Positions 25,619 through 36,454 of a stretch of 64,000 nt of DNA are shown here, in pieces. Each line of letters starts with the position of its first letter. Position 1 is the stretch's first letter. The DNA is from Gordonia humi (lineage in GTDB: Bacteria > Actinomycetota > Actinomycetes > Mycobacteriales > Mycobacteriaceae). Location: contig NZ_JACIFP010000001.1 of NCBI RefSeq assembly GCF_014197435.1, forward strand, positions 744,001-808,000. Reading direction: 5' to 3'. A program made the translations under genes and the position numbers. Under the pieces are notes generated by a model. That model searched no databases, was not told the origin of the DNA, and saw only the letters and a program-made list of their open reading frames with translations.

Positions 25619-27223
25619 ATGACCTCCCCCACCCGGACCGATGCGGACGACGAGGCCCCGGCCCAGATCGACCGCAAGGTCGTCTACGTCATCTTCAGTG
25701 CGCTCGTCGCCGCCATGTTCCTGTCCTCGCTGGATCAGAGCATCGTCGGAACCGAACTCCCGACCATCGTCGGCGACCTCGACGCCGTCGACCACGAAGG
25801 CTGGATCGTCACGTCCTACCTCGTGGCGATCGCCATCGTGATGCCGGTGTACGGCAAAGTCGGCGACCTCTACGGGCGACGTTGGCCGTTCCTCATCTCC
25901 ATCGGGATCTTCCTCTGCGGGTCGCTCGGATCGGCGCTGTCGACATCGTTCGCCGAACTGGTGATCTTCCGCAGCCTGCAGGGGCTGGGTGCGGGCGGAC
26001 TGATGATCCTGTCGCAGGCGATCATCGCCGACATCGTCTCGGCTCGCGACCGCGGCAAGTTCATGGGTCCGATCGGTGCGATCTTCGGCATCGCCGCGGT
26101 CCTCGGACCGCTGCTGGGCGGCTGGTTCGCTCAGGGGCCGGGCTGGCGCTGGGCGTTCTGGCTCAACGTGCCGATCGCCGCCATCGCGCTGATCATCGCC
26201 TTCTTCGCGCTCAAGCTTCCGCGTCAGCGCAGTGGCAAACGGTTCGACTTCGTCGGCACACTGTTCCTGGCCCTCGCCACGGCGGGCATCGTCCTGGTGA
26301 CGTCGTGGACGTCGATCGTCTCGAGCGAGAAGTACGACTGGTCAGATCCGTGGCTGCTGGCCCTGCTCATCGGCGCCGTCGTCTGCCTCGGCGTGTTCAT
26401 CGTCGTCGAGCTCAGAGTGGCCGAGCCGCTGATCCCCCTGCATCTGTTCCGCGACCGGGTGTTCTCGGTGTCGACGGCCATCGCGTTCGTCGTCGGCGTC
26501 ACGATGTTCGCCGCTCTGGCCTACCTGCCGACGTTCCTGCAGATGGCGCACGACGTCGACCCGACCGACTCCGGTCTGCTGATGCTGCCGATGACGATAG
26601 GTCTGATGATCACCGCGATCGGTTCCGGTTTCCTGATCGCCAAGACCGGCAGGTACCGGATCTACCCGATCATCGGTCTGGCCATCACCACCGCGGGCAT
26701 CGCCTGGCTGACATTCATCACCGCCGACATCTCGATGGTGATGTTCGGCGCGATGATCTTCGTCCTGGGCTTCGGCATGGGTCTGGTGATGCAGACCATC
26801 GTCATCGCCGTCCAGAACGCCGTCCCGTCGGCCCAGGTCGGAACGGCGACGTCGACGAACAACTTCCTCCGCGAGATCGGTGCGGCGATCGGCACATCCG
26901 TGTTCGGCACCGTGTTCACCACGAGCCTGGCGGGCAAGCTCGACGACCTCAAGAACTCGATGCCGTCGGCGGCGAAGGCCGGGGCGGCCTCCGACCTCAC
27001 GCCGGAGTCGGTCGGTGCGCTCAAGAACACCGACCCGAACCTCTACCACGAGATCATCGACGCGTACGCCGACGCGATGGCGCCGACGTTCTGGTTCCTG
27101 GTCCCGATCGCCGCGGTGGGCTTCGTCCTGTCACTGTTCCTGCGCGACAAGAAGCTGTCGACCACGGCGGGCCTCGTCGACCGCGGGCAGGCGGGAGAGC
27201 TGGCGGGTGCCGGCGCGCGCTGA
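25619..27223 (+). CDS. DHA2-type MFS drug exporter (EmrB/QacA family)
   Basis: A 534-residue exporter with about 14 membrane helices. Motif A is GKVGDLYGRRWPF, and motif C is seen in IGAIFGIAAVLGPLLGGWF; helix 1 carries FLSSLDQSIVGTELPTIVGDL, the DHA2 D1 motif. Such pumps export drugs, dyes or lipids with protons. A palindromic operator lies just upstream. It is 81 bp before leuS in the same direction, but the products are unrelated. Confidence 0.93.
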   Translation: MTSPTRTDADDEAPAQIDRKVVYVIFSALVAAMFLSSLDQSIVGTELPTIVGDLDAVDHEGWIVTSYLVAIAIVMPVYGKVGDLYGRRWPFLISIGIFLCGSLGSALSTSFAELVIFRSLQGLGAGGLMILSQAIIADIVSARDRGKFMGPIGAIFGIAAVLGPLLGGWFAQGPGWRWAFWLNVPIAAIALIIAFFALKLPRQRSGKRFDFVGTLFLALATAGIVLVTSWTSIVSSEKYDWSDPWLLALLIGAVVCLGVFIVVELRVAEPLIPLHLFRDRVFSVSTAIAFVVGVTMFAALAYLPTFLQMAHDVDPTDSGLLMLPMTIGLMITAIGSGFLIAKTGRYRIYPIIGLAITTAGIAWLTFITADISMVMFGAMIFVLGFGMGLVMQTIVIAVQNAVPSAQVGTATSTNNFLREIGAAIGTSVFGTVFTTSLAGKLDDLKNSMPSAAKAGAASDLTPESVGALKNTDPNLYHEIIDAYADAMAPTFWFLVPIAAVGFVLSLFLRDKKLSTTAGLVDRGQAGELAGAGAR

Positions 27224-27304
27224 TCGTCCTCGGGCGCGTGGTCGATGCGGCAGCGGTGAGCCTCCGGTTTCGGCACCGACTCGTGCGCCGTTTACCCTGG
27301 TTGC

Positions 27305-30163
<2,859 letters not shown>

Positions 30164-30169
<6 letters not shown>

Positions 30170-30251
30170 CGAGCGACCCGGAATCTCACACGGTTCAGCC
30201 CATTGGCCAGATCCTTGTTAGATTAGAGATGTCTTAATCTAACAATCCCCA
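30164..30251 (+). repeat. Left 88-bp direct repeat flanking the AlbA_2 gene
   Basis: This begins at CCGTAGCGAGCGAC, which includes the leuS stop codon, and ends with AATCCCCA. It aligns without gaps to 31986-32073, with roughly 80 percent identity by eye. Identical blocks include ATCTCACACGGT, GCCCATTGGCC and TAATCTAACAATCCCCA. It contains a perfect 10-bp palindrome at 30216-30244. See the paired entry. Confidence 0.88.
30216..30244. promoter_or_regulatory. Palindrome upstream of the AlbA_2 gene
   Basis: TGTTAGATTA and TAATCTAACA form perfect 10-bp arms around a 9-base centre, in the left direct repeat and 25 bp before the GTG at 30270. The arms are conserved in the right repeat while the centre differs, which suggests that the arms are what is selected. 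It fits an operator, possibly for the protein's own helix-turn-helix region, or an insertion-site symmetry. Confidence 0.65.
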
Positions 30252-30269
30252 GATGGGGGAGGTGTCGCC

Positions 30270-31991
30270 GTGTACATCACCGGTGTCGACCGTCGACGTG
30301 AACTGGAGCAGACCGTCGCCGGGCTGCTCGCGTCGGCCGTCGACGGTCGCATTCGCTCGACGAAGGAGACTCAGTCGGTCGACTTCAAGGAGGAGGCCGG
30401 ACGGCGCAGTGGGCGGGGAGAGATCGATCCGGGGCTGTCGAAGAATCCCGCCGCTGCGGTTGCGCTCGGCGACGAGGTCGCATGCATGGCCAACTCGCCG
30501 GGCGGCGGTGCTCTGGTCTACGGCGTTGAGGACGGGACTGGGGAGATCATTGGGACCGAGCTCGACGTCGACTGGCTGAGGGACACGATCTTCGCGAAAG
30601 TCGGTGTGGCGCCGGATATCCAGATCGAGACAGTAGAGGGGCACCGCCTGCTGGCGGTGTACGTGGCCGAGGCGCGTGAACCAGTAGAGGACACCGGCGG
30701 TCGTATTCGCTGGCGTGTCGGGGACGCTTGTTCGCCGGTCGATCGATCGGAGTGGTGGGAGCACAGGGAGCGAGCATCGCACGCGGACCCGATGGCTGCA
30801 CCGTCCCATCGAACGATGGACGATGTTCGGGCCGGCGCGATGGAGGTGATTCGAAGTTATCCGGGCACCGGCGACGGGACCGATGAGGAACTTCTTCGCC
30901 GACTCGGTGCACTGCGGTCGGACGGAGCGCTGACCCAGGCGGGAGCATTGCTGGTCGCCCCGATGGACCGAATCATCATCGAGTTCACCGAGTTCGACGT
31001 TCCGGGAGGATCGGTGACGAACCGTGCCGCCCCGCGGGCCGAGACTTCACTTCTCGAGCAGCTGGCCGAGACGGAGAGAGTGGTCGCGGCAGTCAATACG
31101 TCGATTACGATCGAGCGGGGCATCCGGCATGAGGCGTTGCGCCGTATTCCGGAGCTGTCGGTACGTGAGGCGCTGCTCAATGGCGTGGTGCACCGTGATT
31201 GGAATCGATCGGAGCCCACGGAAGTCCGTTGGTTCGAGGCCGACAGTATGCTTGTCGTCTCGAGCCCAGGAGGCTTTCCCGGAGAGGTCACGGCTTCGAA
31301 CATCTTGAGTAATCGTGAGGCGCGGTACCCGGCGCTCGCAGATCTGTTCCGTGCCCTCGGGCTCGTGGACAAACAAGGCGTAGGTGTCGACCGAATGTAT
31401 CGCGAGATGATCACCATCGGGCACCGTCCGCCGGAGATCGTCGAGGCCGCTGGCACGCGTGTGGAGTGCACTCTGGTCGGCGGGCGTCCCGTCTATCCGG
31501 TGATGGAATGTGTCCGGGCCATCACTCCTGCGGAGCGGCAGAAGGACTACCGCATCGCGATCATCCTGTACGAGCTGATGCATGCGTCGTTCGTCACGAC
31601 GGCTCGCGTGCAGCAAGCGCTTCAGTCGTCCGCAGAGGCTGCGCGGGTGGCGATCGAGGCAGCACGGCAGTCGACCGTCGAGTCGGAGGCGCTGATCGTC
31701 AAACACAAGAAGGCATGGCTTCTAGGTGGCTCTGCTCGTCGGCGGCTGGCCTCCGCGTACGACGGAGACAGCGCGTTTCCGATCGTCTCCTATCTGACGA
31801 CGGACATTGGAAACCAGTCCGCGGCGGCCTTGGACTGGGTCGACACCTTCAGCGCTATTACGACCGGTGATCTGCAGGCGCTGACCGGAACAGCGCGGGG
31901 CACCGCCAAACGCACCTTGGATGCGCTCGTCGACGACGATCAGCTGGCCACCGCTGGATCCGGCCGATCGAGCCGTTACGAGCGACCGTAG
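30270..31991 (+). CDS. AlbA_2 / Schlafen-type ATP-binding regulator, single-gene cassette
   Basis: A 573-residue protein. About 25-140 is an AlbA_2 (Schlafen-like) domain: KETQSVDFKEEAGRR, then ACMANSPGGGALVYGVEDGTGEIIGTELD. About 260-410 matches an ATPase of the HATPase_c_4 type: LSVREALLNGVVHRDW, VVSSPGGFP, RYPALADLFRALGLVDKQGVGVDRMYREM. The C-terminal 140 residues look like winged-helix segments. Such proteins are linked to transcription control, RNA cleavage or phage response; which applies here is unknown. The GTG start has GGGGAGG nine bases upstream. It is bracketed by 88-bp direct repeats and appears less GC-rich than leuS, consistent with acquisition as a unit. Confidence 0.88.
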   Translation: MYITGVDRRRELEQTVAGLLASAVDGRIRSTKETQSVDFKEEAGRRSGRGEIDPGLSKNPAAAVALGDEVACMANSPGGGALVYGVEDGTGEIIGTELDVDWLRDTIFAKVGVAPDIQIETVEGHRLLAVYVAEAREPVEDTGGRIRWRVGDACSPVDRSEWWEHRERASHADPMAAPSHRTMDDVRAGAMEVIRSYPGTGDGTDEELLRRLGALRSDGALTQAGALLVAPMDRIIIEFTEFDVPGGSVTNRAAPRAETSLLEQLAETERVVAAVNTSITIERGIRHEALRRIPELSVREALLNGVVHRDWNRSEPTEVRWFEADSMLVVSSPGGFPGEVTASNILSNREARYPALADLFRALGLVDKQGVGVDRMYREMITIGHRPPEIVEAAGTRVECTLVGGRPVYPVMECVRAITPAERQKDYRIAIILYELMHASFVTTARVQQALQSSAEAARVAIEAARQSTVESEALIVKHKKAWLLGGSARRRLASAYDGDSAFPIVSYLTTDIGNQSAAALDWVDTFSAITTGDLQALTGTARGTAKRTLDALVDDDQLATAGSGRSSRYERP

Positions 31992-32073
31992 CGAGCGACG
32001 TGGGATCTCACACGGTCCGGCCCATTGGCCGATTCCTTGTCAGATTAGCGGCTTCGTAATCTAACAATCCCCA
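31986..32073 (+). repeat. Right 88-bp direct repeat flanking the AlbA_2 gene
   Basis: The second copy of the repeat at 30164-30251, same length and orientation. It also begins with CCGTAGCGAGCGAC and so holds the stop codon of the AlbA_2 gene just as the left copy holds that of leuS. Both genes therefore end in Pro-stop. Its end is 8 bp from the convergent DUF2804 stop. Confidence 0.88.
32038..32066. promoter_or_regulatory. Palindrome in the right direct repeat
   Basis: TGTCAGATTA and TAATCTAACA, separated by 9 bases, reproduce the palindrome at 30216-30244 with one arm mismatch and an unrelated centre. Confidence 0.6.
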
Positions 32074-32081
32074 CGTCAGAC

Positions 32082-33143
32082 CTAGATCGTGATGCGCTTC
32101 TGCTCCCCGACGCCGAACATTCCGTCGACCGACAGCGTCGCATCGCGGCCGTGGATGACGCCGGAGAACCAGCCGTACGGCGCGTAGTACTCCGCGAGGG
32201 CCTTCATGGGACCGACGTGCATCGTGGAGCGGACCGTCGGGGTGAACGTCACGTCGACGGCGCCCTGATCGTCGCGGGCGTGCCACGGTCCCCACGGTCC
32301 GTCGGGTCGGGTGAAGGTCACCGGCGGCAGTCGGTGCAGCGTGTCGCCCATCCAGATCGCGTTCTCGTTGTACGTGGCCGGATCCCGGATCTGGTTGTCG
32401 GTGAGGTTGAATCCTTCGACGACGCCCGTGTCGCCGCGTCGTGCCGCGGTGATCCAGTCGTAGCGCATGGGGCGCGGATAGTCGCCGTGGTGGTCGTCCA
32501 GTATGAGGAAGCCGCGGTCGTCGTCGAAGCCGATCCGCTCGTCGTCGATCACCAGTGAGCCGTGCATCGGCATCATCGCCTTGTGCGAGTACAGCGCATC
32601 GGTGTCCGAGAACGGATGCACGATCACCAGGTGCGCCGCCTCGTCGTCATCGCAGACTCCGGTCGCGTGCAGGGCCATGGACGGCGCGTCGCCCCGAGCG
32701 TCGCGCACGGCGTCGACGGTCACCAGACCGTCGTCGATCTCGTTGCCGATGGCGATCCGCAGTCCGGCGAAGTCGCCGTGCGACGAGGTGCCGCTCAGGC
32801 CGCGCGCCACCGACAGCATCGGCGACGGCAGCCTGGTCTCGAAGCGCGCGATGGTCGCCGCGTGCTTGTCGACGACGAGGACCTGCAGCAGCCCGAGCGA
32901 CTTCGCGTTGTAGACGGCGCCGAGGACGAAGTGATCGTCGTCGCCGAGTTGGAACGCCTCCCACTCCTTGAGACCGAAGTCGCGGGCGATGCGACGTGCG
33001 CCCGACAGCAGTCCGGATCCCGCGGCGTCGAGCGGGTTGATCCTCGCAATCGGGCCGTCGTAGGTACCGAAGGCGTAGCGGCCGTCAGTGACCAGGGCTG
33101 CGGGCGGCGCGGTGGCCGCCGGGGGGAACGTCGCGGTGGTCAT
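32082..33143 (-). CDS. DUF2804 family protein
   Basis: A 353-residue soluble protein of the DUF2804 family, whose function is unknown. Family-typical segments include FGLKEWEAFQLGDDDHFVLGAVYNAKSLGLLQVLVVDK, ALYSHKAMMPMHGSLVIDDE, LDDHHGDYPRPMRYDWITAAR and GPWHARDDQGAVDVTFTP, together giving a repeated beta-rich fold reminiscent of lipocalin-like hydroxysteroid or carotenoid-binding proteins. There is no signal peptide. Its stop faces the AlbA_2 cassette, and the next gene is divergent. Confidence 0.82.
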   Translation of the reverse strand: MTTATFPPAATAPPAALVTDGRYAFGTYDGPIARINPLDAAGSGLLSGARRIARDFGLKEWEAFQLGDDDHFVLGAVYNAKSLGLLQVLVVDKHAATIARFETRLPSPMLSVARGLSGTSSHGDFAGLRIAIGNEIDDGLVTVDAVRDARGDAPSMALHATGVCDDDEAAHLVIVHPFSDTDALYSHKAMMPMHGSLVIDDERIGFDDDRGFLILDDHHGDYPRPMRYDWITAARRGDTGVVEGFNLTDNQIRDPATYNENAIWMGDTLHRLPPVTFTRPDGPWGPWHARDDQGAVDVTFTPTVRSTMHVGPMKALAEYYAPYGWFSGVIHGRDATLSVDGMFGVGEQKRITI

Positions 33144-33257
33144 GCCTCATTGTGACCACACGCCCTGATCCGCTGTCACGCGGCCGCGCACTGTGGTGCA
33201 GGGAGCGTGCTCATGTTCGTGCCCTCAAGGGATGGTTACTGTGCCCGACTTGTCCTT

Positions 33258-33271
33258 AAGACGAGCGTCTT
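33258..33271. promoter_or_regulatory. Short palindrome in the malic enzyme leader
   Basis: AAGACG-AG-CGTCTT is a perfect 6-bp inverted repeat in the 225-bp gap between DUF2804 and the malic enzyme gene, about 100 bp before the start. It might be an operator. The rest of this gap shows no small gene or RNA that I can support. Confidence 0.3.
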
Positions 33272-33368
33272 CGGAGAGGTGGCTCGAATCTGTAGTCGAG
33301 GGCCGGGCGGAGTCGCTCGGACCGTCGTATGCGTTCACATTCGTATTCCGTCCATGGAGGAGCAACTC

Positions 33369-35018
33369 ATGCCGCAAAGGCCCCCTGTCAGTACCGATCC
33401 GCTGCGCAACCGTGGTACTGCGTTCACCGTCGAGGAGCGTGCGAATCTCGGCCTGGTCGGGCGACTGCCCTCCGCCGTGGAGACTCTCGACCAGCAGGCC
33501 GAGCGGTGCTACCGACAGATCAGCAGCTACTCCACCGACCTGCAGAAATACACGTATCTCGACCAGCTGCACGACCGCAACGAGGTTCTCTACTACAAGG
33601 TGATCGTCGATCACCTCGCCGAGATGCTGCCCATTGTGTACGACCCCACGATCGGCGACGCGATCAAGCAGTGGAGCAACGACTACCGGGATTCGCGGGC
33701 GGTCTACCTGTCCATCGACCGGCCCGACGATGTGCGTGAGTCGTTCACCGGTCTGGGCCTCGGCCCCGACGACGTCGACCTGATCGTCGTATCCGACGCC
33801 CAGGAGATCCTCGGCATCGGTGACTGGGGCGTCAACGGAACCGATATCTCGATCGGCAAGCTCGCCGTGTACACGGCGGCCGCGGGTATCGACCCGTCTC
33901 GTGTGGTCGCGGTGAACCTCGACGTCGGCACCGACAACGAGATGCTGCTGAACAGCCCCGAGTACCTCGGCAACCGCCACGCCCGCATCACGGGACAGCG
34001 CTACGACGACTTCATCGACCTCTACCTGCGCACCGCGTCGGAGTTGTTCCCGAACGCGCTCCTCCACTTCGAGGACTTCGGACCGAGCAACGCCCGCCGA
34101 ATCCTCGAGGACAACCGGGACTCGTACCGGATCTTCAACGACGACATGCAGGGCACCGGCGCGATCGTCATGTCGGCGGTGTTCTCCGGTCTCAAAGTCA
34201 CCAAGCAGACTTTCGCCGAACAGCGTCTCCTGGTGTTCGGTGCGGGCACCGCGGGCACCGGCATGGCCGACCAGATCAGTGCCGCGATGATCCGAGACGG
34301 GCTGACCGCCGAGGAGGCCAAGGCGCGCGTGTGGCTCGTCGACGTCAACGGTCTGGTGACCGACGACATGGCCGATCTGCCGAATTACCAGGCCGCATAC
34401 GCGCGCCCGGCCGCCGAGGTCGCCGACTGGGCGCGCACCGACGGTGTCATCGACCTGCTCACCGTTGTCACCGAGGTGAAGCCGACCGTCCTCATCGGCA
34501 CGTCGACGATGCACAACGGCTTCCCGCAGGCGGTGGTCGAAGCACTCGCCGCCGGGGTCGAGCGGCCGATCCTGTTGCCGTTGTCGAATCCGACCGAGCG
34601 CATCGAGGTGATGCCGGCCGACGCGGTCCCGTGGACCGACGGCCGCGCACTGATCGCCACCGGCATCCCGGTGGATCCGGTGAACTACAACGGGGTGGAC
34701 TTCCACATCGGTCAGGCGAACAACGCGCTGCTGTACCCCGGACTCGGTCTGGGCACCATCGTCTCCGGCGCCGCCCGCGTCACCGACGGGATGCTTCTCG
34801 CCGCCGCGAAGGCCGTCGCCGACCAGGTCGATCCGACCGGTCTCGGGGCATCACTGCTGCCCGACGTCGACAATCTGCGGGCGTCGTCGGCGACCGTGGC
34901 TCTCGCCGTCGCCAAGCAGGCGATCGAGGAGGGCGTGGCCACCAAGAGCCACGACAACCTCGTGCAGGCCGTGGAGGACGCGATGTGGCAGCCGATCTAC
35001 TCGGGGAACCCCGAATGA
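33369..35018 (+). CDS. NAD-dependent malic enzyme
   Basis: Oxidatively decarboxylates malate to pyruvate. Its 549 residues show the malic enzyme N-terminal domain ([33 protein letters not shown]), the [33 protein letters not shown] segment, the metal site [14 protein letters not shown]...[11 protein letters not shown] and the Rossmann motif [15 protein letters not shown]. The length and GTDNE loop fit the large NAD-linked (SfcA-like) class. The ATG at 33369 is preceded by GGAGGAG, so the upstream in-frame codons are leader. It overlaps fumC by ATGA, so malate feeding and draining enzymes are coexpressed. Confidence 0.95.
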
Positions 35019-36454
35019 GCGACGACACGGCACCGGAGGTACGCGATCTGCCGATCGGTATCGACGCCGCGGGAACGCGCCACGAGACCGACTCGATGGG
35101 CGGCATCGACGTGCCCGCCGACAAGTACTGGGGCGCGCAGACGCAGCGTTCGCTGCAGCACTTCTCGATCGGTAACGACAAGATGCCGGTCGAGGTCTAC
35201 CGCGCCTACGGCTACGTCAAGAAGGCCGCCGCCCGGGTGAACGGTGCGGCGGGCCGCCTGCCCGCATGGAAGGCCGACCTGATCGAGAAGGTCGCCGCCG
35301 AGGTGATCGACGGGGATCTCGACGAGCACTTCCCGCTGTACGTCTGGCAGACCGGGTCGGGCACGCAGTCGAACATGAACGTCAACGAGGTGATCAGCAA
35401 CCGCGCGATCCAACTCGTCGGCGGGACGTTGGGCTCGAAGGATCCGGTTCACCCGAACGATCATGTGAACATGGGTCAGTCGTCGAACGACTCCTTCCCC
35501 ACCGCGATGCACATCGCGGTGGTCAAGGAGTTCAGCGAGCGGCTGCTTCCGGCGATCGAGGCGCTACAGGCCGCTTTCGCTGCGAACTCCGCCAAATGGA
35601 GCGACGTGGTTAAGATCGGCCGCACCCACCTGCAGGACGCCACCCCGCTGACTGTCGGCCAGGAGTGGTCGGGCTACGCGCGACAGATCGAGCAGGGCAT
35701 CGAGCGGCTGAAGAGCTGTATGGAGGGCCTGTACGAGCTCGCGTTGGGTGGCACCGCGGTCGGGACGGGGCTGAACGCACCGGAAGGCTTCGACGTCGAG
35801 GCGGCCGCCGCGATCGCCGAGCTCACCGGCTTCCCGTTCGTCACCGCCGAGAACAAGTTCGCGGCCCAGGGCGGACTGGACGCGATGGTCGGGGCGAGTG
35901 CGGGTCTTCGCGCGCTGGCCGTGCCGCTGATGAAGATCGCCAACGACATCCGCTGGCTGGCGTCCGGACCCAGGTGCGGCTTCGGCGAGCTGACCCTCCC
36001 GGCGAACGAACCGGGCAGCTCGATCATGCCGGGCAAGGTCAATCCGACCCAGTGCGAAGCGATGGTGATGGTCTGCATCCAGGTGCTGAGCGAGGACTCC
36101 TGCGTGGCCTTCGCCGGTTCGCAGGGCAACTTCGAGCTCAACGCCATGCGGCCGATCATCATCAACAACGTCCTGCACTCGGCGCGCATCCTCGGCGATG
36201 CGGCCGTGAAGCTGCGCGAGTACTGCATCGAAGGAACCGAACTGCACGAGGAGCGGATCGCCGAACTGCTCGACCAGTCGCTGATGCTCGTCACCGCGTT
36301 GTCGCCGGTCATCGGATACGACAAGGCGTCGGCGATCGCCCACAAGGCGAACAACGAGGGCTCGACGCTGCGCGAAGCGGCACTGGCGACGGGATACATC
36401 GACGCGGCCACGTTCGACGACGTCGTCGACCCGCACAAGATGATCGGTCGGTAG
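35015..36454 (+). CDS. fumC: Class II fumarate hydratase
   Basis: Interconverts fumarate and malate in the TCA cycle. Its 479 residues include [29 protein letters not shown], the catalytic-loop signature [11 protein letters not shown] and [18 protein letters not shown]. The GTQSNMN and SSND(S/T)FPTA residues favour fumarase over aspartase. The ATG is inside the malic enzyme stop (ATGA), and a strong hairpin follows at 36466-36507. Confidence 0.96.

What the first reader, a model, noticed from the sequence alone, without database searches (positions are those of the whole stretch)
30164..32073. Single-gene AlbA_2/ATPase cassette bracketed by 88-bp direct repeats at the 3' end of leuS
The two copies (30164-30251 and 31986-32073) are the same length, align without gaps at roughly 80 percent by eye, and each starts with the CCG-TAG end of the gene before it. 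The leuS stop and the cassette gene stop are therefore both supplied by the repeat. This is the pattern left when an element integrates at the 3' end of a housekeeping gene and restores it, yet no integrase or transposase is present, only an AlbA_2 plus HATPase_c_4 regulator. The gene looks less GC-rich than leuS. It may be a minimal mobile regulatory or defence unit that moves by homologous recombination or with help in trans.
Basis: partly seen in the sequence, partly recalled or inferred. Interest (0 to 1): 0.8.

Follow-up and report, generated by a model that had tools for sequence, protein, structure and literature searches.

The report
Single-gene cassette between matching repeats
A bacterial gene for a Schlafen-like protein sits between two copies of a short DNA repeat that looks tailored to that protein; relatives of this unit sit at many different places in related bacteria, and at three places a relative has the repeat once and no gene, so it looks like a tiny mobile or removable cassette without a known moving enzyme.

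Summary
In detail: 30164-30251 and 31986-32073 are direct repeats ("R", 84% over 88 nt, the only two full copies found in the genome) around one 573-aa gene (SLFN_AlbA_2, HATPase_c_4, DUF5635, DIP2311-like winged helix). It is not a local oddity. Direct repeats bracket the gene in 14 of 23 close-relative loci (window included) and 22 of 30 loci of a sister clade, against 1 of 73 neighbouring control ORFs. Each lineage has its own repeat, built of half-sites that match on both sides of one gene. The gene tree does not follow the host genera. At three sites one genome has R-gene-R and another a single R without the gene; one is this leuS-DUF2804 site, which three other congeners have with no R. 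R reaches from the gene's end to just before its start; it is not a piece of leuS, and leuS has its own stop. Best reading: a horizontally spread single-gene cassette with LTR-like repeats that loses its gene by recombination between repeats, its protein probably binding R. How it enters new sites is unknown. My searches of the held papers found no description. The Schlafen fold hints at function, untested.

The parts
27305..30169 (+). leuS, host gene upstream of the cassette; its last 6 bases (CCGTAG) coincide with the first 6 of the left repeat
   Evidence: Pfam tRNA-synt_1_2 etc.
30164..30251 (+). left repeat R (R-up); ends 18 bases before the gene start
   Evidence: (D2)
30182..30190 (+). 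outlying half-site AATCTCACA of R-up
   Evidence: read; same layout in relatives
30215..30245 (.). palindrome TTGTTAGATTA-N9-TAATCTAACAA of R-up, presumed binding site
30270..31991 (+). cassette gene, 573 aa, GTG start; homologue of PDB 3lmm (DIP2311)
30366..30740 (+). SLFN_AlbA_2 domain (residues 33-157)
   Evidence: Schlafen relatives
31248..31451 (+). HATPase_c_4 domain (residues 327-394)
31497..31742 (+). DUF5635 domain (residues 410-491)
31800..31979 (+). DIP2311-like C-terminal domain (residues 511-570), taken as winged helix
   Evidence: MarR-like matches of the model
31986..32073 (+). right repeat R (R-dn); starts with the gene's last codon and stop
32004..32012 (+). outlying half-site GATCTCACA of R-dn
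   Evidence: read
32037..32067 (.). palindrome TTGTCAGATTA-N9-TAATCTAACAA of R-dn
32082..33143 (-). DUF2804 gene, convergent host neighbour; leuS next to DUF2804 is the empty-site arrangement in L047, L048, L054

Best explanation
This is one copy of a horizontally spread single-gene cassette with the layout R-gene-R. R is the stretch that would lie between the stop of one gene copy and the start of the next in a gene-R circle or tandem, and it holds the array of half-sites that the cassette's own winged-helix protein most likely binds (autoregulation; inferred). Because R stands at both ends in the same direction, recombination between the two copies removes gene plus one R and leaves a single R; the same exchange can make the two copies alike. 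Shown: the bracket in most of the loci of two clades, lineage-specific half-sites, a gene tree at odds with the hosts, many sites, single-R and no-R states at homologous sites. Inferred: that the protein binds R, that R x R exchange (host recombination, perhaps helped by the protein) makes the single-R state, and that a gene-R circle or an R-gene-R unit is what enters new sites.
For: Direct repeats score above 60 in 14 of 23 clade-A and 22 of 30 clade-B loci; inverted in 0 of 23 and 1 of 30; mechanically chosen neighbouring ORFs: 1 of 73 (a 74th, antisense to an element gene, dropped after the count). Mismatched up/down pairs in clade B, n 173: median 27, 95% point 61. Single R against R-gene-R at homologous sites: L143/L111, flanks 94.8% and 90.6%; L223/L078, flanks 93% and 92%; L226/window, leuS and DUF2804 on both sides. 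No-R sites: L047, L048, L054 and L202 against L125. Decay with R kept: L014/L052, last 41 codons; L146, last 13 codons between two Rs. Spread: Corynebacterium held together is rejected, p-AU 5e-54, Actinomyces 1e-4 (groups tested after the tree was seen, quick tree). dN/dS 0.05-0.27 in the 8 pairs computed. R copies of one genome more alike than between genomes at the site of L031, L042 and, weakly, L078.
Against: No excision product or circle was observed and no known recombinase domain is present. No bracket of score 35 or more in 6 of 23 clade-A loci (L025, L029, L030, L039, L041, L075; L075 has palindromes on both sides) and 7 of 30 clade-B loci (L106, L108, L118, L122, L124, L126, L127). 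L008, L009, L010 and other relatives at 44% and less, not counted in clade A, lack it. Homogenisation is absent in L101/L102 and mixed in L113/L114 and L117/L120. L223 and L226 are not clean products: about 40 nt lie between R and the right flank in L223, about 240 nt between R and DUF2804 in L226. Reading frames are interrupted in L031 and L078, so at that site two of the three R-gene-R genomes may hold a dying gene. Loss rather than gain is supported by outgroups only for the L223 site.
Confidence: 0.58

Rival explanations
1. A resident, self-regulated gene with two operator arrays that the protein bridges into a DNA loop; the second array is kept by selection and made alike by gene conversion. 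Spread between genera is ordinary gene transfer of the locus and single-R states are ordinary deletions.
For: R-up lies close upstream of the gene (14-150 bases in the bracketed clade-A loci); half-sites fit a bound protein; genes are under purifying selection; L025 keeps only R-up; L030 has eight R units upstream and none found downstream.
Against: Spacer DNA between half-sites is shared by the two copies of a genome although binding alone does not demand it; R-dn ends at or within a base or two of CCTGGGGAAATG at several unrelated sites; patchy distribution over many sites and a gene tree at odds with hosts.
Confidence: 0.2
2. The encoded protein itself is the moving enzyme: a Schlafen-fold nuclease with ATPase and winged helices that cuts at R and moves or excises the cassette, a new kind of transposase or recombinase.
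For: R-dn has the same right end at several unrelated sites, and the matched stretch usually starts at the first half-site; arrays specific to the lineage at both ends; hairpin-forming palindromes in the window copies, z -2.6 and -2.3; two of the three Schlafen active-site acids are kept, E33 in 48 of 50 and D/E38 in 47 of 50.
Against: No target duplication or target consensus was evident by eye in the flanks printed; the third acid falls on a variable position; Schlafen relatives in the PDB list are described as RNA-cutting or nucleic-acid-binding; host recombination suffices for deletion.
Confidence: 0.12
3. Remnant of tandem duplication: an array gene-R-gene-R formed once by unequal exchange and later lost its first gene, leaving R-gene-R.
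For: R-up carries a copy of the gene's 3' end in L037 (about 30 codons) and L032 (about 9), and 13 or 41 codons remain beside R in L146 and G035.
Against: No locus with two adjacent gene copies was noticed among those read (not searched for systematically); it does not explain the shared right end of R-dn at unrelated sites.
Confidence: 0.15
4. Classical integration at the 3' end of leuS by an integrase acting in trans, leuS being restored by the element.
For: R begins at the leuS stop; R also begins at a host stop codon in L125; leuS neighbours related elements elsewhere.
Against: No R at L047, L048, L054, two of which end leuS in CCGTAG by themselves; relatives sit beside many other genes.
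Confidence: 0.05

Closest known systems
LTR elements with solo LTRs (recalled, from no call)
   Same: Direct terminal repeats that lie over the control region; loss of the body leaves a single repeat
   Different: No reverse transcriptase or integrase; the repeats carry presumed binding sites of the element's own protein
Restriction-modification units with long target duplication (papers seen only as a listing with abstract starts)
   Same: Gene unit without transposase between long direct repeats (as recalled)
   Different: There the repeat is host target DNA (recalled); here R-free sites exist and R is specific to the element lineage
Integron gene cassettes with attC (recalled)
   Same: Single gene plus a hairpin-forming site, direct repeats
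   Different: No integrase or attI seen; R carries lineage-specific half-sites; no mixed gene arrays seen in the loci read
DIP2311 / COG2865 'predicted transcriptional regulator' family (PDB 3lmm)
   Same: Same protein architecture, E 1e-197
   Different: No report of flanking repeats or mobility found in my searches
Schlafen N-domain and SAMD9 tRNase domain
   Same: Sequence match of residues 27-110 to SLFN11 and structural matches
   Different: Fused here to HATPase_c_4 and winged helices; third catalytic acid not conserved

Membership tests
DIP2311 family (SLFN_AlbA_2 + HATPase_c_4 + DUF5635 + DIP2311-like_C) | All four Pfam domains above cut-off | tested here: met
DIP2311 family (SLFN_AlbA_2 + HATPase_c_4 + DUF5635 + DIP2311-like_C) | Full-length match to 3lmm | tested here: met
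   residues 8-571, E 1e-197
Schlafen-type nuclease | Schlafen N-domain fold | tested here: met
   (7fex E 1.8e-5, 7zel, 5yd0; 9o0d SAMD9 tRNase E 1.3e-3)
Schlafen-type nuclease | Three catalytic acids (E209, E214, D252 of SLFN11; numbering recalled) | tested here: inconclusive
   E33 in 48 of 50, D/E38 in 47 of 50; third aligns to variable E87 beside D88 (48 of 50)
Schlafen-type nuclease | Cuts RNA or DNA | not testable with these tools
   needs an assay
Insertion sequence / transposon | Encodes a known transposase or integrase | tested here: not met
   no such domain in the only gene between the repeats
Insertion sequence / transposon | Target site duplication | tested here: inconclusive
   none evident by eye in the flanks printed; boundaries uncertain by some bases
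Insertion sequence / transposon | Occurs at unrelated sites and is absent from homologous sites | tested here: met
Known anti-phage defence system | PADLOC profile over most of the protein | tested here: not met
   only partial matches in the middle of the protein

The most novel reading that the evidence does not exclude
A new class of minimal mobile element: a single Schlafen-fold ATPase with winged helices binds arrays of half-sites in direct terminal repeats and itself drives excision or insertion of its cassette, with the repeat-protein pair diversifying in step across Actinomycetota.
Probability: 0.15. Interest if true: 0.9.

Novelty: new variant of a known kind. Interest (0 to 1): 0.62.

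Why it matters
DIP2311-type proteins have a solved structure and no known job that I could find. That two actinobacterial clades of them travel as R-gene-R units with their own matching repeats gives an immediate, testable DNA target for the protein and a reason to look at them as selfish or defensive cassettes. If the Schlafen-fold protein acts on the repeats, that would be a new way of moving DNA; if not, it is still a clean natural case of LTR-like gain and loss of one gene without a transposase.

Tried and rejected
Rejected: a tRNA or known RNA as attachment site (no tRNA in the window; no Rfam match in 26000-36000). Rejected: the repeat as a common intergenic repeat (in the own genome; matches in 3 of 41 genomes, one the own genome, the other two of 33 and 20 nt). 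Rejected so far: phage or plasmid cargo (plasmids: 28 records, best 30% identity over 94% of the gene; phages: 7 records, none covering 80%; viral contigs: none). Distant homologues: of 30 loci rescored only L092 and L097 were above 60, and L088, bracketed, was missed there because the upstream piece was cut too short; one search gives it a 194-nt match, so 3 of 30 (L090 in that list is the same place as L122 of clade B). Plasmid loci L189-L192: L189 45, the others 34 or less. Closest relatives sampled for L125 were only 65-76% alike, so the empty site L202 has no base-exact edges. Stops reported in L110, L114, L118, L129 (also L120, L125, L123) lie in leader sequence before the start that I take as real; L108's came from an over-extended gene end. 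In one search, 11 loci were read: L143, L144 (partial R) and L158 have no gene hit; L133 and L147 only the first 50 or so codons; L146 and L136/L154 as described; L131, L148, L150 show no half-site array and are taken as chance. Dropped rows: L024 (3-kb contig, R twice upstream, no downstream R) and L008 (44%, no bracket) are not in the clade-A count; L031, L078, L108 not in the 50-protein alignment (internal stops), so one of nine planned dN/dS pairs was not computed; gene ends of L033, L040, L108 were corrected. The top score of L123 is a host-gene duplication; its R pair scores 194 (as L091). G508 (5% contamination) holds two similar elements and is not used as evidence of transposition. 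The confidence was lowered from 0.60 to 0.58, and the rival of integration at leuS raised from 0.04 to 0.05, on rechecking, because L223 and L226 are not clean and two genes at the L223 site are interrupted.

Full report
Observation. The two 88-nt direct repeats exist exactly where stated, 84% identical without gaps, and no other full copy was found in the 5.09-Mb genome. Both hold an outlying half-site and a palindrome TTGTTAGATTA-N9-TAATCTAACAA. [quoted passage not shown]

The bracket is a property of the family. A scan of species genomes gave 19 loci, and a sample of 401 genomes of the window's family had any match in 57, with four further close relatives, one of them with a split gene. I call the window, L025-L042 and L075-L078 (44-62% identity) clade A. 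In 14 of these 23 loci a direct repeat joins the regions before and after the gene with an alignment score above 60; 17 of 23 reach 35. A sister clade B (23-31% identity to the window protein) was found in 52 of 201 sampled genomes of genus g24, 58 matches in all, of which 30 loci were handed out; 22 of these 30 score above 60, mostly over 100-175 nt at 75-100% identity. L084 in another genus (g34) and L088 show the same kind of bracket. I take g24 to be Corynebacterium because G403 (L078) and the named C. mastitidis (L042) are 83% alike over 3.1 kb of flank and gene. Controls: of 74 mechanically chosen neighbouring ORFs of 250 aa or more, one is antisense to an element gene; of the other 73, one scores above 60. 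Inverted repeats above 60: 0 of 23 and 1 of 30.

What R is. In clade B the matched stretch mostly starts at the first of several AAACAACT-type half-sites, passes a TGACCTGC-like core, continues through inverted half-sites, and in several loci ends at CCTGGGGAAATG; upstream it runs on into the gene's leader, downstream unrelated host DNA begins there (L105, L107, L110, L111, L116; within a base or two in L104, L112, L119). Another group (L117, L120, L121, L125, L128-L130) ends a little earlier. In clade A, R has a half-site, a spacer of about 22-27 nt and a palindrome. The half-site differs between lineages (for example TGTTAGATTA, TGTGAGATTA, TGTCACTTT, TGTTGATTTA, AAACAACT, GAAAGATAT) yet is the same on both sides of one gene. 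R sometimes includes the end of the coding sequence: 2 codons in the window, about 9 in L032, about 31 in L037, stop counted. R is therefore roughly the stretch that would join the end of one gene copy to the start of the next.

Single-R and no-R states. A pattern for the right end of R in 201 g24 genomes (21 with a match, control 0) led to Rs without a gene. L143 (G447) and L111 (G475) are the same place upstream of leuS: flanks 94.8% and 90.6% identical, one R without gene against R-gene-R. A strict palindrome pattern in 401 genomes of the window's family matched 5 genomes, control 0: the window's two copies, two around the broken gene of G403, the remnant in G026, and two Rs without gene. 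It misses diverged Rs such as that of G035. One of the two, L223 (G366), lies at the site that holds R-gene-R in L031, L042 and L078 (flanks to L078 93% and 92%); about 40 nt of other sequence lie beside the R, and the reading frames of L031 and L078 are interrupted. The other, L226 (G223), lies between leuS and DUF2804, the window's own site, with one R and no gene, and about 240 nt before DUF2804. At the leuS site of the window's genus 37 genomes were searched and 30 loci read: the window has the unit; L052 (G035) keeps the last 41 codons and one R; L047, L048 and L054 have leuS next to DUF2804 with no half-site in the whole locus; 28 of 30 show no gene trace by tblastn. The repeat itself was not scanned locus by locus in the other 25. 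L202 is an R-free empty site for L125, whose two Rs are identical over 108 nt; its flanks are 68% and 73% alike.

Spread. A clade-A tree of 21 rows plus three outgroups scatters Corynebacterium and puts Actinomyces urinae with C. propinquum (96% SH-aLRT). Holding Corynebacterium or Actinomyces together is rejected (p-AU 5e-54 and 1e-4; quick tree, groups tested after the tree was seen; paralogues could also split them). Flanks of the 30 clade-B loci form eight groups alike on at least one side and eleven single sites. Proteins are under purifying selection, dN/dS 0.05-0.27 in the 8 pairs computed of 9 planned.

Homogenisation. At the shared site of L031, L042 and L078 the two Rs of one genome are 97%, 97% and 86% alike, against 83-92% between genomes, which suggests exchange between the copies. 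L101/L102 show the opposite (98% between the orthologous left copies and 89% between the right, 77-78% within a genome) and two other pairs are mixed. So exchange seems to happen but not constantly.

Protein. The AlphaFold model (pLDDT 87.8) matches 3lmm, then Schlafen N-domains, the SAMD9 tRNase domain and, weakly, MarR-like winged helices. E33 and D/E38 align with the first two active-site acids of SLFN11 (numbering recalled), while the third falls on a variable residue next to an almost invariant aspartate. E300, N304, H308, D310, G334, G372 and D374, which I take as ATPase motif residues from recall, are kept in 50 of 50.

How it most likely works. Shown: the bracket in two clades, matching lineage-specific arrays, a gene tree at odds with the hosts, single-R and no-R states. 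Inferred: the winged helices bind R and control the gene; recombination between Rs removes the gene; a gene-R circle or R-gene-R unit enters new sites by an unknown route. Rivals are listed with their tests.

Novelty. Searches of the held papers for DIP2311; AlbA_2 with direct repeats and mobile; COG2865; Schlafen with prokaryotic, AlbA and tRNA; flanked by direct repeats with single gene, no transposase and Corynebacterium; AlbA_2 with Corynebacterium; Schlafen with bacterial and direct repeats; and DUF5635 returned 8 papers in all, none of which, by title, abstract start or the passages read (PMC8780604, PMC7641849, PMC12153781), describes such a unit; the other five were not opened. The library lacks most subscription papers and preprints, so this is only absence from what was searched.

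Noticed in passing
window 27305-32073; L014/L052; L111, L115, L116, L143, L160; L105: leuS neighbours elements of both clades in three arrangements: directly 3' (window genus), 5' (g24), and about 0.9 kb from its 3' end (L105). tRNA-Leu(CAG) lies within 1.6 kb of the L025/L031/L042/L078 elements and in L202 near the empty site of L125; tRNA-Ser lies near L038. SLFN11 is reported to cut type II tRNAs (a reference title), which I recall to mean Leu and Ser; this may be meaningful or chance.
   Followed up: partly
L030 3515-3929: Eight tandem 55-bp palindrome units upstream of the clade-A gene of Corynebacterium phocae, none found downstream.
   Followed up: no
L123 942-1092 and 3197-3349: About 150 bp of the 3' end of a host gene is duplicated on both sides of a clade-B element, outside its Rs.
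   Followed up: partly
L146 (G581): R - last 13 codons - R: the gene body is missing between two repeats.
   Followed up: partly
L136/L154 (G582): Two R copies about 250 bp apart upstream of one gene.
   Followed up: no
L092, L097: Distant homologues in genus g43 have 85-bp and about 125-bp direct repeats that contain a terminator-like hairpin.
   Followed up: no
L024 and L023: A 3-kb contig labelled Thermomicrobiales MAG is 90% identical over 383 bp to a decayed element in G026 of the window's genus, so the label may be wrong or the transfer recent.
   Followed up: partly
L143 1183-1330 and 1522-1595: Small dispersed repeats of G447 lie on both sides of the single R.
   Followed up: no
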